A stretch of 64,000 nucleotides of DNA from Asticcacaulis benevestitus DSM 16100 = ATCC BAA-896. Its GTDB lineage: Bacteria; Pseudomonadota; Alphaproteobacteria; Caulobacterales; Caulobacteraceae. The notes under the pieces were generated by a model that was not told the origin of the DNA, made no database searches, and was given only the letters and a program-made list of their open reading frames with translations. A program made the translations under genes and the position numbers. Of this stretch, positions 286-5,814 are shown in pieces (the first letter of the stretch is position 1; the number at the start of each line of letters is the position of its first letter). Where the stretch lies: NCBI RefSeq assembly GCF_000376105.1, contig NZ_AQWM01000010.1, positions 1-64,000 of the forward strand, given 5' to 3'.

Positions 286-570
286 CAGGACAGTTGTGCG
301 GGTGAAGTGTGCCGATTTGATGGTCTCGAAAGCCATATTTTCTCAATAAAATCAGCAACTAGCAGCTTCCTAACTGTGCCGATTCACTGTGCCGATTCTA
401 TGCGTCCACCACGAGAATCGGATCATGCAGAATCCACCATCAAAAATGATCCGATATCGGACGATCTTTCACGTTCTAAAAAACGACTTGTGAAGCTGTT
501 TGGTCAACGATCTGAGAAGGCTGTTCAGACCGAAAGACTTCCCCGATCCTCCCCTGTGAGATCGAGACGG

Positions 571-1303
571 ATGGGAATCATTTCCAGAGGCAAGTCCTAT
601 TACGTTCGGCTCAACGTCCCTAAATCGCTGCAAGCCATCGTCGGCAAGACGGAATTTCGACGGTCTCTCAAAACTGGTCGAATGGCGGAGGCCGTCAGGA
701 AGGCTCGAATTGTATCCGCTGAATTTGAGCAATGGCTGCTTGAAGCCGAGGGGAAGGCCGTTGAAGGCATTGCGCCAGTCGCGCTGGCGACGCCTTCGAG
801 CTTCAAACCCGAGCCAACAGGCAAGTCCCTACGGGAGCTTTGTGAGGTCTTCCTGAAAGACCCGACCAAGAATAGGTCAGGCAAGGCCGTTTCTGGCTAT
901 TGGAACGCCGTCGAACTGTCAGAGGCGGTTCTGGGGCGTGACAAAGTCATCGGCGCAATTGAAAGGCAGGACTCACATCAAGCTGTTTCCAGAACTGTCG
1001 ATTAGCGCGACAGGCTATTACAGTGACCCATTCTCGAAATGGTTTACGCGCTTCTTGATTAAGTGCGGCGCGGCGCGCGACAAAACATCATTCCACTCAT
1101 TTAGACACTGCTTCAGAGACGCAATTCGGGACGCCAACCTTGACCATGAAATCGGACTGGCTTTAGGTGGGTGGACATCGGCTAATGGCAAGGACGCTGA
1201 AATCGCATCTAATTATGGCAGAGGATACAACACGAGGTCATTGAAGCAAGCTATTGATAAAATAGCATATACCTCCTTGAACCTGACACACCTACTTAAA
1301 TAG
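571..1303 (+). pseudogene. Tyrosine recombinase (phage-type integrase), internally deleted and frameshifted
   Basis: Two pieces of one integrase lie in different frames. The first, from an ATG at 571 (the frame is open from 307), has the N-terminal region seen in DUF6538-type integrases, beginning MGIISRGKSYYVRLNVPKSL. The second, readable from about 938, has the C-terminal half of the catalytic domain with FHSFRH (the HxxR box), a GGW box and a tyrosine in NYGRGY. The segment between them, which should hold the first catalytic arginine and the lysine, is absent, and the frame changes near 950-970. The remnant should be inactive. Its stop overlaps the convergent flagellin gene by 12 bp. It marks an old integration event next to the IS element. 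Confidence 0.8.
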
Positions 1304-2878
1304 CTTCAAAATCCAGTCTGGCTCTTGATTTGCCATAGAAAGTGTCTGTGTCGCCAGTTGCGCCTTTACCTGCGCGGCCTGCAAATTGGCACTCTCTTTG
1401 CCCATATCAGCGTCAACCAAATTGCCGACCCCTTTAGTCAGGCTATCAGAGAGCTTATTGTTCTGAGTAAGCATCTGGTCGATTGCATTCTGTTGCGACC
1501 CAAAATATCCCGCGTAAGTGGAAACCCTGCTTATTGCGCTATCGACGCTATCTAAGATCGCTTGCGGACTCAGGTTATTTAAATTGTTTAGCCCCAACCA
1601 CTGTGTTGTCATCGGTTGCTTGAATAGAGTAAAATTACCGCCCGCTGGATTAGAAAGAAGATCCACACTATAGTTTTTAAAGGGCGTGATCGTAATGCTT
1701 GTCAACGCTACGCCATAATTATCGGGCATGGGATTTGAAACGGGTGTTACGTTAGCCGTTGCGTTAAAATTTACGGTAAAACTTCCAGTATTTGCCTGCC
1801 CTTCCCCCATGTATCCTTGTGATACTGAACCATATGAAGACTGCTGATTATATATCTGATCAGAGCCATTGTTCGGAGCACGCACAGAGATACTTTTTGA
1901 ATCATTATACCAATCACCCGTCATGTTGATTTGAGCAGTAACGACTTCGGAAGGATTGGGGAAACTGCGTGCGAGCGCGTAATATGAGTCGCGCTCAGCA
2001 ACGGTCACATTGCCGTCTGCGTCAGTGTCGATGTTGGCAAAGACGCCGTCTGCCTGAGCAGTCGAACCGCCAACGCCAGTATACCAGTTTTCAAATTCGG
2101 ATTGATCGACACCACTGCTGGAGTTCGCATCGAGCGACGCCATGGTTGGCTCCTTGAAGAAAGCGTCCCTTTCAGTCGTCGTCAGATTGCCATCGGCATC
2201 ACCATCTATTTTATCGAAATAGTAGTCCGCCTGCGCCGTCGAATAGCCCAATGAATTGAAGTAGGTTTCCACGTCAGCTTTTGTAGCCGTAGAAGCCCTA
2301 TCGTGATCCGCAGCCATATAATCGCGAGCATAGCGAAGGTAATTATGCACGCTGTAATCATAGGTGACCATGCTCGGAGGCCCACTGATTGTCGCGGAAT
2401 AACTAATGCTTTTTTGGTAGCCTGTCGAAGAACCAGATAGCGTCTGCGCGGTTCCCATCTCTGGCTTCATAAGATTTTGGCCGTTGAAGGTGGCATTATC
2501 AACTGCGCTGCCTATTTGTTTTCCAAGCGCATTAAGATCGTTCATCAAGGCGTTATGCGATGTAGCATCCAACGAACTATCATTGAGCGAGACTGCTATT
2601 TCTTTCATCCGCACCAGCAAATCGCTGATGTTTTCGGTCGCAGCAGCGGTGACGTCCAGTAGGCTTTTGCCACGGTTCAGGCTGTCGTTTACCGCCTTCC
2701 ATGAACCGATATCACCGCGAATATTTTGTGCTATCGCATATGCCGCACCATCGTCCTTCGCGCTTGATATCTTCTGCCCTGTGGAAATGCGATTTTGCGC
2801 CTCTTGCAAGTCACGATTATTGGCGTTCAATATTTGAACTGCCTGCATCGCGTTCTTGTTGGTTAGGATAGAAGCCAT
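1292..2878 (-). CDS. Large flagellin with an inserted EF-hand (calmodulin-like) module
   Basis: The 528-residue protein has intact flagellin ends. Residues 1-140 form the conserved N-terminal D0/D1 part (MASILTNKNAMQAVQILNAN, with the RISTGQKISSAKDD segment), and about 435-528 form the C-terminal part ending LSMANQEPDWILKLFK. Caulobacter-type flagellins are about 270 residues, so some 250 residues are inserted. Residues 187-300 of the insert contain two near-perfect canonical EF-hand loops, D225-E236 and D284-E295, plus weaker loops at 250-261 and 191-202. Residues 310-435 are unrecognised and have a beta-rich look. The gene has no flagellar neighbours, lies between recombinase remnants, and shows no clear Shine-Dalgarno before the ATG. 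The ends suggest it can still enter a filament; calcium binding is inferred from the loop residues. Confidence 0.9.
   Translation of the reverse strand: MASILTNKNAMQAVQILNANNRDLQEAQNRISTGQKISSAKDDGAAYAIAQNIRGDIGSWKAVNDSLNRGKSLLDVTAAATENISDLLVRMKEIAVSLNDSSLDATSHNALMNDLNALGKQIGSAVDNATFNGQNLMKPEMGTAQTLSGSSTGYQKSISYSATISGPPSMVTYDYSVHNYLRYARDYMAADHDRASTATKADVETYFNSLGYSTAQADYYFDKIDGDADGNLTTTERDAFFKEPTMASLDANSSSGVDQSEFENWYTGVGGSTAQADGVFANIDTDADGNVTVAERDSYYALARSFPNPSEVVTAQINMTGDWYNDSKSISVRAPNNGSDQIYNQQSSYGSVSQGYMGEGQANTGSFTVNFNATANVTPVSNPMPDNYGVALTSITITPFKNYSVDLLSNPAGGNFTLFKQPMTTQWLGLNNLNNLSPQAILDSVDSAISRVSTYAGYFGSQQNAIDQMLTQNNKLSDSLTKGVGNLVDADMGKESANLQAAQVKAQLATQTLSMANQEPDWILKLFK
1979..2320 (-). other. 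Duplicated paired EF-hand module inside the flagellin
   Basis: This segment encodes flagellin residues 187-300. It reads as two copies of a unit of about 55 residues. Copy 1 (187-240) holds a degenerate loop at 191-202 and a canonical loop DGDADGNLTTTE at 225-236. Copy 2 (246-300) holds a divergent loop DANSSSGVDQSE at 250-261 and a canonical loop DTDADGNVTVAE at 284-295. Both copies share the linker STAQAD before the second loop, which supports tandem duplication. By hand count, 1981-2100 is about 54% GC, whereas the following flagellin segment at 1621-1800 is about 42%. Confidence 0.85.
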
Positions 2879-3002
2879 CTACGAATGAATTTTGCCCGAA
2901 TCAAATCTCGCTATTCGGGTAAATGGTTACACGTCCGAAATACGAAATTGCAACCTCCATCTGCACCGCCACCACCTGCGAGGGCGGACATTCTTCATCG
3001 CA

Positions 3003-3497
3003 TCAATACAAGGTCTGACGCGAGACGCCGATCTCTTTGCACAGATCACCAACGATGGTCTCAGGCTTGCCCATCGATGGTTGTGCCAGCCGCAGCTTGG
3101 CAGGTCTCATGGTGAACTTCCTGCCGCCGCTACGACCACGCGCACGAGCAGCCGCCAGCCCCGCCATCGTCCTTTCTCGGATCAGTTCGCGCTCGAAGCC
3201 CGCAAGGCTGGCGAAGATTCCAAAGATGAGCTTGCCTGATGCGGTCGTCGTATCGATCTCGGCCCCATGACCTGCCAATACCTTGAGGCCGATCCCTCGG
3301 TTGGCCAGATCATGCACGGTGTTCACCAGATGGCGCAGGTCTCGGCCGAGACGGTCGAGCTTCCAGACAACTTAGGTGTCGCCTTCACGCAGAGCTTTGA
3401 GACAGGCCAGCAAGGCAGGTCGATCATCCTTCTCACCCGACGCCACATCCTGATAGATGTTCTCTGGATCAATGCCGAACTCGGCCAGTGCATCCAT
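3003..3497 (-). pseudogene. Serine recombinase (resolvase/invertase) with in-frame stop and damaged 5' end
   Basis: The frame reads MDALAEFGIDPENIYQDVAS and continues to an in-frame TAA at 3372-3374, then resumes with VVWKLDRLGRDLRHL and runs to a C-terminal helix-turn-helix (DLCKEIGVSRQTLY). This is the classic small resolvase/DNA invertase layout. The first roughly 20 residues, which normally hold the catalytic serine (YARVS box), are not recognisable upstream of 3497, although the frame stays open to about 3536. With the active-site region and an internal codon lost, it is almost certainly inactive. It is a second mobile-element remnant flanking the flagellin gene. Confidence 0.75.
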
Positions 3498-3539: not shown

Positions 3540-3993
3540 GCGTCTTCAGAACGCGAAGCGCTGTCATTGCGCTGGCATTTGTTAGAATGGATGGCTACTG
3601 AATTCCGTTTGCAAACAAAGGGACTTAAATGCGGCCGGTATTATACACGGCGAGCCACACCGCATGGAAGGCCACCGTCAACGAGCCTATCTGGCATGGC
3701 TTAGGACGGACAGGAAGGGTCTCAATGACCGTGCCGTCTCGCTGTAGCCCAAGCGCTCAACATGGCCACAGAGGGCTCACAGCCGCCTTCAAGGGGCTGC
3801 GTGGAGTGGCCAACGCTCAACAAAGCGTCCACGATTCTTCGACAGAATGGGCCTGCCGTGGTTGATTGAACAGACCATTCGTCGAAAGAACACCATTGAA
3901 ATTAATGCCCAAATGCCCCCCAAAGCCAAGCTGACAATCACAACCAAAAGCGCACCCGCCGAGTCCACCGTCGCCTTTTATTCCCCGAAGTCT
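3540..3993. other. Gene-poor stretch with no recognised gene
   Basis: Open frames on both strands here are short and show no recognisable domain. The composition resembles decayed DNA between the mobile region and the Kef-type antiporter. I see no clear terminator, repeat or RNA gene. Confidence 0.5.
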
Positions 3994-5814
3994 TCAAGAC
4001 TCCTGCTGGTCTTCCTTCAGGATGCCTTCCAGTTCCTCCCGGGACAGCTTGGCGAAGTTGATCATATCCGGCTCACTTTCGAAAAACTCGAACGAACGGC
4101 GCAGAGTCTGAATGTCGTGCGCGCGGAACTTCTTGGCCTTGCGCTCGATAACGGCCTTGGCATAGCCCATGGCGACCATGGCGTCGCGCGCCAGGGTGAG
4201 TGAAGAATCGAGCGTTTCGCGGTGGTAATAGTCGACGCCGGCCTTGTGAAGTTCATAGGCGTGACGGCGGTTTCTCGCCCGTGCATAGACCAGCAGCTTC
4301 GGGAAGTGCAGCTTGCTCAGCTTGACGATCTCAACCGCGCTTTCAGCGTCATCGACCGCCACCACCAGCATGCGCGCTTCCGCCAAACCGGCCGAACGCA
4401 ACAGATCCAAGCGCGTGGCGTCACCGAAATAGCCCTTTGAGCCAAAGCGGCGCAGCAGCTCGACCTGATCGGGGTTCTTCTCCAGAACCGTCACCTTGAG
4501 CCCCTGCGACAGCATAAAACGACCGACGATCTGCCCGAAACGGCCAAAGCCGGCGATGATCACCGGGTTATGCTCGTTGATGACATCGTAATCGCGCTCC
4601 GGTAAGGCGCTCATGAAACGCGGCAGGATAAACCTGGAGAACAAAGTGGTCAGGATCGGCGTGGCGGCGATGGAAAGCGCCACCACCAGCACAAGGAACT
4701 TCTGCGCGTGCGGATCGATGATCTTCAATCCGCCGATCAGTTGCAGAAGAACAAAGGCAAACTCCCCGCCTTGTGACAAACCGAGCGCTAGCCCCATGGC
4801 GGGCGCGCTATCGAGCTTGAATATCTGACCAAGGCCATACAGGATGACACCCTTGATCAGCATAAGCCCGATCACCGCGCCCACCAATCCGAGCGGGTGA
4901 TGGGTAAATTCGGTGAAGTCCATCCCCATCCCGACCGAGATGAAGAACAGGCCAAGCAACAGCCCCTTGAAGGGTTCGATATCGGATTCGATGGTGCGGC
5001 GGTATTCGGAGTTGGCCAGCACAACGCCGGCAATAAAAGCGCCGAGCGCCGGCGAGACGCCCACCAGTTCCATCAGGATGGTCACGCCGAACACCAGGGC
5101 CAGTGAAACAGCGGTGAAGACCTCGCGCAGATTAGCGCGGGCGATGGCCTGAAAGACATAGCGCGACAGATAATTGCCAGCCAGGATGACCGCGGCGATG
5201 ACGGCGATGACGGCGATCGGCTGCAACCAGGCCGGCCAGTGAGCGATCAGACTGGCGCTTTCCGCCCCCTCCACGACCGGCATAACCCCGAAATTGAGCG
5301 TGGTGGCCAGAATGGGGATGATGATGAGGATAGGGATGACGGCGATATCCTGAAACAACAGGATCGAGAAAGACGTTTCGCCAACCACCGAATGGGTCAG
5401 GTTTTTTTCGTTGAGCATCTGCATGACCAACGCGGTCGAGGACAGCGCCAGCGCCATGCCGATGGCCAGCGAAGCCTGCCAGCCGTGGCCTAGCACAATG
5501 CCTACCACCATCAGCGCCAAAGCCGTCACCGTCACCTGCAGGCCGCCTAAGCCGACAATCTGCCGGCGCAGACGCCACAGAATGGCTGGCTCGAGTTCCA
5601 TACCGATCAGGAACATCATCATGATGACCCCGAATTCGGCGAAGTGCATCACCTTGTCAGCGTCGCCGATCAGGCCCAGCACGAAGGGCCCGATGATAAC
5701 GCCGGCGATCAGGTAGCCCAACACGGAACCGAGTTTGAAGCGCTGCGCCAGCGGCACGACGAGACAGCCCGCCAGCAGGAACACAAACACATTGAGTAAG
5801 AGATGAATGTCCAT
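3994..5814 (-). CDS. CPA2-family cation:proton antiporter of the KefB/KefC type
   Basis: The 606-residue product has an N-terminal membrane domain (about residues 1-390, a dozen hydrophobic segments) with CPA2 features such as GSVLGYLIAGVIIGP, and a long GEFAFVLLQL segment. A soluble TrkA-N (RCK) nucleotide-binding domain follows at about 410-530, with the Rossmann glycine motif IAGFGRFGQ. Such proteins exchange K+ or another monovalent cation for protons in the inner membrane and are gated by ligands on the TrkA-N domain. No kefF/kefG-like ancillary gene is next to it, so glutathione gating is uncertain. The gene stands alone, divergent from the downstream methyltransferase. Confidence 0.88.
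   Translation of the reverse strand: MDIHLLLNVFVFLLAGCLVVPLAQRFKLGSVLGYLIAGVIIGPFVLGLIGDADKVMHFAEFGVIMMMFLIGMELEPAILWRLRRQIVGLGGLQVTVTALALMVVGIVLGHGWQASLAIGMALALSSTALVMQMLNEKNLTHSVVGETSFSILLFQDIAVIPILIIIPILATTLNFGVMPVVEGAESASLIAHWPAWLQPIAVIAVIAAVILAGNYLSRYVFQAIARANLREVFTAVSLALVFGVTILMELVGVSPALGAFIAGVVLANSEYRRTIESDIEPFKGLLLGLFFISVGMGMDFTEFTHHPLGLVGAVIGLMLIKGVILYGLGQIFKLDSAPAMGLALGLSQGGEFAFVLLQLIGGLKIIDPHAQKFLVLVVALSIAATPILTTLFSRFILPRFMSALPERDYDVINEHNPVIIAGFGRFGQIVGRFMLSQGLKVTVLEKNPDQVELLRRFGSKGYFGDATRLDLLRSAGLAEARMLVVAVDDAESAVEIVKLSKLHFPKLLVYARARNRRHAYELHKAGVDYYHRETLDSSLTLARDAMVAMGYAKAVIERKAKKFRAHDIQTLRRSFEFFESEPDMINFAKLSREELEGILKEDQQES

What the first reader, a model, noticed from the sequence alone, without database searches (positions are those of the whole stretch)
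1292..2878. Flagellin carrying a calmodulin-like EF-hand domain in its variable region
The ends are those of a polymerising flagellin, but about 115 residues of the middle hold two canonical EF-hand loops (D225-E236 and D284-E295) and two weaker ones, with a further unrecognised 120-residue segment after them. The variable region of flagellins faces outward in the filament, so thousands of calcium sites would be displayed along it. Insertions with enzyme activity in flagellins are known (flagellin metallopeptidases); I do not recall an EF-hand flagellin being described. The filament might change stiffness, bundling or adhesion with calcium.
Basis: partly seen in the sequence, partly recalled or inferred. 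Interest (0 to 1): 0.88.

Follow-up and report, generated by a model that had tools for sequence, protein, structure and literature searches.

The report
Flagellin with calcium-binding EF-hand insert
A bacterial flagellin gene carries, in the part expected to face outward on the flagellar filament, a domain of four EF-hand units of the calcium-binding kind; it is real in the sequence and belongs to a rare lineage of stand-alone flagellins, but whether it is made or binds calcium is untested.

Summary
The 528-aa ORF has Flagellin_N and Flagellin_C above Pfam's cut-offs and, between them, four EF-hand units: two canonical loops (225-236, 284-295), one near-canonical (250-261), one degenerate (191-202). 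They form an in-register duplication of one two-hand unit. No Pfam EF-hand model reaches its cut-off, but AlphaFold predicts four helix-loop-helix units, and none of 200,000 shuffles gave two canonical loops. Of 143 flagellin-like ORFs gathered, this one alone has a strict EF loop. The nearest named profile is a bacterial EF-hand family, not calmodulin.

It groups (support 100/99) with five long flagellins of the same family, one in the same genome, none with EF-hands. Relatives of that lineage occur on Novosphingobium plasmids; some sit beside a two-component system or a resolvase. The window gene lies among broken recombinase pieces, has foreign base composition and shows no recognisable flagellar promoter.

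A filament surface that folds or changes with calcium is plausible but unproven; an unexpressed mobile leftover is the main rival. Domain insertions in flagellins are a known kind; this insert appears undescribed within the searches made.

The parts
1292..2878 (-). EF-hand flagellin ORF, 528 aa, stop included
2468..2869 (-). Flagellin_N, residues 4-137
1298..1555 (-). Flagellin_C, residues 442-527
1964..2356 (-). Four-EF-hand domain, about residues 175-305
   Evidence: AlphaFold model of residues 165-315, mean pLDDT 79.1; bounds approximate
2273..2308 (-). EF1 loop, residues 191-202, degenerate (Ala at position 5, Asp at 12)
2171..2206 (-). EF2 loop, residues 225-236, canonical
2096..2131 (-). 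EF3 loop, residues 250-261, near-canonical (Ser in place of Gly at position 6)
1994..2029 (-). EF4 loop, residues 284-295, canonical
2156..2308 (-). First copy of the internal repeat, residues 191-241
1979..2131 (-). Second copy of the internal repeat, residues 250-300
1643..1963 (-). Unrecognised segment, residues 306-412, GC 42.7%
   Evidence: no Pfam match, best match to solved structures E=0.34, no match to the beta-type domain of its relatives

Best explanation
A flagellin of a rare, horizontally moving long-flagellin lineage whose outward-facing part contains a duplicated EF-hand pair. Shown here: flagellin ends, four EF-hand units by motif and predicted fold, internal duplication, membership of the long lineage, foreign base composition, recombinase pieces on both sides. 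Inferred: the protein is exported unfolded by the flagellar secretion system, where cytoplasmic calcium is low; outside the cell two to three EF-hands bind calcium and the insert folds; subunits co-assemble with the five other flagellins of the genome and give the filament calcium-dependent surface patches that affect adhesion, bundling or stiffness.
For: Flagellin_N/C over cut-off; 29 of 33 columns invariant among 26 other flagellins are kept; full-length model gives confident flagellin helices; EF model mean pLDDT 79.1 with helix-loop-short strand-helix at all four loops; Foldseek against PDB: the 50 listed matches are EF-hand proteins, mostly calmodulins, probability 1.00; shuffle controls; clade of six at 100/99; GC 47.8% and GC3 0.51 against 58.6% for the window and GC3 0.78 for the neighbouring transporter gene; resolvase, integrase-type and rve pieces beside it.
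Against: Every Pfam EF-hand match is under its cut-off. TM-scores to calmodulins are only 0.30-0.40 (query-normalised, rows listed). In the full-length model the insert is mostly below pLDDT 50. No relative with the insert was found, so selection on the calcium ligands cannot be tested. No sigma-54-type site lies upstream of the ORF (nearest at 3662-3674, about 780 bases away), the sigma-70-type scan gave no site on the minus strand upstream, and no clear ribosome-binding site is seen.
Confidence: 0.45

Rival explanations
1. An intact-looking but silent leftover of a mobile element: the ORF is kept only because it was acquired recently; the EF-hands do nothing in this host.
For: Broken integrase-type, resolvase and rve pieces on both sides; foreign composition; no recognisable flagellar promoter or ribosome-binding site; none of the other 24 genomes of the genus lists a match reaching past residue 173 (rows at E<=1e-30).
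Against: 528 codons open without a stop; 29 of 33 invariant flagellin columns kept; two canonical loops intact. A consensus scan is a weak test of expression.
Confidence: 0.35
2. The EF-hands are structural only: calcium is bound permanently outside the cell and stabilises the insert or helps export and folding, with no regulated change of the filament.
For: Extracellular calcium is usually high enough to saturate EF-hands (general knowledge); two canonical loops fit tight binding.
Against: One degenerate and one near-canonical loop suggest sites of unequal affinity, which would allow graded binding.
Confidence: 0.15
3. No EF-hand at all: chance acidic, Asn/Gly-rich stretches.
For: Pfam EF-hand models stay under cut-off.
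Against: 0 of 200,000 shuffles gave two strict loops; in-register duplication; predicted fold; XopAW profile E=6.1e-8.
Confidence: 0.02
4. Assembly join: the insert was fused to the flagellin by mis-assembly near a contig end.
For: The gene lies 1.3 kb from the start of contig C10, in an assembly of 100 contigs; repeats and mobile pieces are near.
Against: The flagellin ends match one lineage on both sides of the insert and the reading frame is open throughout.
Confidence: 0.03

Closest known systems
Flagellinolysin and other flagellins with domains in the hypervariable region (PMC5595980)
   Same: A foreign functional domain sits between intact flagellin ends; scattered distribution suggesting lateral transfer.
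   Different: Metallopeptidase there, EF-hands here; no HExxH motif in this protein. The survey's full list of 61 domains was not readable here, so a rare EF-hand entry in it is not excluded.
Ordinary short flagellins of the same family (about 275-320 aa ORFs)
   Same: N and C helical parts, 40-48% identity in the alignment for the shorter rows.
   Different: They lack the insert and the 'PM..LGL' segment before the C-terminal helix, and form a separate side of the tree.
Long flagellins of the same family and of Novosphingobium plasmids
   Same: Same clade and same C-terminal half, e.g. 39% over 116 residues with the one in this genome.
   Different: Their middle is an unrecognised beta-type domain, one or two copies; no EF loops. 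Some have a neighbouring two-component system; the window gene does not.
NCBIfam XopAW (NF041410) and alphaproteobacterial EF-hand proteins
   Same: Best named profile for the insert, residues 213-328, E=6.1e-8; an EF-hand protein of the same genome matches the same profile (E=7.1e-11).
   Different: Score far under the family cut-off (32.7 against 120); those proteins are free-standing. That XopAW is an effector of plant pathogens is recalled and in the model's title; none was fetched.
Calmodulin
   Same: Four EF-hands in two pairs.
   Different: Best calmodulin by sequence E=0.044; one hand degenerate; TM-score below 0.5.

Membership tests
Bacterial flagellin | Flagellin_N and Flagellin_C above curated cut-off | tested here: met
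Bacterial flagellin | Conserved core residues | tested here: met
   29 of 33 columns invariant in 26 others kept
Bacterial flagellin | Assembles into filaments | not testable with these tools
   needs protein work
EF-hand domain | 12-residue loops with ligands at 1, 3, 5, 9, 12 | tested here: met
   two strict, one near, one degenerate
EF-hand domain | Curated EF-hand profile above cut-off | tested here: not met
   best 27.3 bits against 30
EF-hand domain | Helix-loop-helix with short loop strands, in pairs | tested here: met
   prediction only; strand partners were not shown
EF-hand domain | Binds calcium | not testable with these tools
   needs protein work
Calmodulin | Four functional hands and clear sequence kinship | tested here: not met
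   degenerate EF1; best calmodulin E=0.044
XopAW (NF041410) | Score above family cut-off | tested here: not met
   32.7 against 120
Flagellinolysin | HExxH motif | tested here: not met
   absent
Long orphan flagellin lineage (defined here) | Same clade on N plus C parts | tested here: met
   100/99 with 66 rows; 98/93 with plasmid rows
Two-component-linked flagellin module (seen here) | Histidine kinase and response regulator beside the gene | tested here: not met
   no adjacent homologue in the window; no kinase match at E<=1e-25 in 25 genomes of the genus

The most novel reading that the evidence does not exclude
There is a mobile lineage of stand-alone flagellins, carried on islands and plasmids and in some cases with their own two-component system and a resolvase, that lets a bacterium swap in a filament with a different outer domain; the EF-hand member is a version whose surface folds and changes with calcium.
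Probability: 0.2. Interest if true: 0.8.

Novelty: new variant of a known kind. Interest (0 to 1): 0.55.

Why it matters
If the protein is made, a single gene would give a filament an array of calcium sites, a directly testable way to make a flagellum sense or respond to its surroundings and a natural example of calcium-triggered folding after export through the flagellar channel. The lineage it belongs to suggests that outer flagellin domains are exchanged by mobile DNA.

Tried and rejected
Searches for relatives of the insert: order sample 20 of 299 genomes with a match and class sample 17 of 385 (the two samples overlap). Apart from the window's own gene, the 35 loci taken from them (L025-L059) are free-standing EF-hand proteins: 31 matched the insert and no flagellin part, the other 4 were checked. 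Genome contigs twice: 14 and 19 stretches matched a pattern, none confirmed; viral contigs with the insert: none, with the long-lineage alignment: 67 stretches, none confirmed; phages: none; plasmids: 194 records match the protein, none over 80% of it. These pattern scans find close relatives only.

Two long hits first taken as possible EF flagellins were not: G049/G045 (28%) and G985/G989 (31%) have no EF loop.

Homology of residues 306-412 to the beta-type domain of the relatives: not supported (hhalign probability 0.4%). That domain itself has no Pfam match and no solved relative (best E=0.09).

Organism: not named by any tool. Multiple short flagellins and family make-up suggest Caulobacterales, perhaps Asticcacaulis; this is a guess from recall.

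Paper searches for an EF-hand or calcium-binding flagellin: searches gave no such report; open-licence PubMed Central papers only. One search (Asticcacaulis and flagellin) gave nothing used. Read: passages and one section of PMC5595980, passages of PMC10574481; its supplements were not available. Other papers were seen as listings only.

Full report
Observation. The ORF 1292-2878 (minus) is a 528-aa flagellin with Flagellin_N and Flagellin_C over their cut-offs. The genome holds six flagellin matches. Between the ends lie four EF-hand units. Two loops are canonical (225, 284), the one at 250 has Ser in place of Gly at position 6, the one at 191 has Ala at position 5 and Asp at 12. The first two and last two units are an in-register duplication (22 of 51 residues identical, 80 of 153 bases; 0 of 2,000 shuffles as high). 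Two strict loops never arose in 200,000 shuffles. Against: all Pfam EF-hand matches are under cut-off.

Structure. A model of residues 165-315, built on an alignment with 19 free-standing EF-hand proteins from other genomes (20 of the 30 rows then available counting the window), has mean pLDDT 79.1 and pTM 0.63, with helix-loop-helix at all four loops and DSSP strand residues at loop positions 7-9. This alignment could favour the EF fold. Foldseek against PDB lists EF-hand proteins, mostly calmodulins, probability 1.00, E from 6.3e-5, with TM 0.30-0.40 by query length. The full-length model (27 rows, all others flagellins) has mean pLDDT 55.3: the flagellin helices are confident over most of their length, residues 201-220 average 75-79, the rest of the insert is low. 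Position on the filament surface is inferred from flagellin architecture, not modelled.

Kinship of the insert. NCBIfam XopAW matches residues 213-328 at E=6.1e-8, far under its cut-off; an EF-hand protein on contig C14 of the same genome matches the same profile. PF13499 has three places over cut-off in the genome, none of them the flagellin. Identity of the insert to the free-standing proteins is 15-29% in the alignment, so the donor is unknown.

Distribution. No second EF-hand flagellin was found: in 25 genomes of the genus the only listed match beyond residue 173 is the gene itself (rows at E<=1e-30); in samples of 299 and 385 genomes of the order and class the other insert matches are free-standing proteins; of 143 flagellin-like ORFs gathered only this one has a strict loop; the phylum sample of 398 genomes, searched with the whole protein at E<=1e-27, gave none. 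Samples are part of larger groups.

A separate flagellin lineage. The C-terminal 117 residues match a 380-aa flagellin on contig C3 at 39%, including a 'PM..LGL' segment that the short flagellins lack in the alignment. A profile of these two ends (A3) searched in 385 class and 328 order genomes ranked next a few long ORFs: G1077 (616 aa open frame), G076 (421, twice), G244 (449), G149 (496). One hit of similar rank, G254, is an ordinary short flagellin and was not counted. On N plus C parts (66 of 96 rows, 55 drawn at random) the window gene, the C3 gene and four of these form one side of a branch at 100/99 (the second G076 copy was not in the tree). With two Novosphingobium plasmid flagellins added the group holds at 98/93, and at 98/95 without the C3 gene. 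Branches are long. An earlier tree of 33 rows, before these relatives were known, left the window gene outside the short flagellins at 94/91.

Mobility. In G076 a 4.25-kb stretch occurs twice at 90% identity; it holds a 197-aa resolvase tail-to-tail with the flagellin, a protein with a weak to borderline kinase ATPase match, and a response regulator. One copy lies near a large serine recombinase, the other beside a McrBC protein. Two Novosphingobium plasmid flagellins lie beside an annotated sensor kinase and response regulator, homologous to those of G076 at about 41% and 48-53%. The related plasmid genes lie beside HipA-type toxin genes and lack the flagellin N part in the annotated ORF (L132). 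The G1077 gene lies in a contig with type III restriction and HEC-05 matches. Against a general link: the G244 and G149 genes show no mobile neighbour among the few neighbours scanned, and the C3 gene of this genome lies between a sigma-factor-like gene and ruvB (names from reading the ORFs, not scanned). In the window there is an rve_3 piece (11-256), a DUF6538 piece (307-1005), an integrase-type piece (938-1303, phrog_1 at E=0.015; one of four plasmid matches annotated site-specific integrase) and resolvase pieces (3003-3326, extending to 3503). No homologous kinase is adjacent.

Composition and expression. GC 47.8%, GC3 0.51, against 58.6% for the window and GC3 0.78 for the transporter gene at 3994-5814; the segment 306-412 is lowest (42.7%). 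No sigma-54-type pattern lies near the start; the 19 matches in the window are what chance gives (mean 17.45). The sigma-70-type scan shows no site on the minus strand upstream of the start. These scans are weak; Caulobacterales flagellin promoters are only partly covered.

Verdict. The EF-hand flagellin is real as a sequence and very probably as a fold. Calcium binding, filament display and function are inferred. As a kind it joins the known flagellins with inserted domains; this insert was not found in print in the searches.

Noticed in passing
L127:5700-9950 and L128:3303-7550 (G076): A 4.25-kb unit with resolvase, long flagellin, kinase-like protein and response regulator, present twice at 90% identity on two contigs.
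   Followed up: partly
L133, L134 (Novosphingobium plasmids NZ_CP030355.1, NZ_CP128493.1): Stand-alone flagellins beside a sensor kinase and response regulator, with two beta-type domains each; no flagellar genes among the features listed.
   Followed up: partly
L099, L100, L102, L098, L132-L134: An unrecognised domain with a 'GRIDLYLDAY..PDVLEIWQGG.R.AATGQ ... SFDYDPA.G' pattern, one or two copies, no Pfam match in the four proteins scanned.
   Followed up: partly
L058 / G000:C14:51411-51605; L029; L052; L054: Free-standing EF-hand proteins without an obvious signal peptide by eye; the one of this genome matches the XopAW profile (E=7.1e-11).
   Followed up: no
window 2895-2919: Seven-base inverted repeat CCCGAAT / ATTCGGG with an 11-base loop, 16 bases upstream of the flagellin start (read).
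   Followed up: no
window 307-1303: Two integrase-type pieces in different frames whose 3' end overlaps the flagellin's stop tail-to-tail; a broken gene by appearance.
   Followed up: partly
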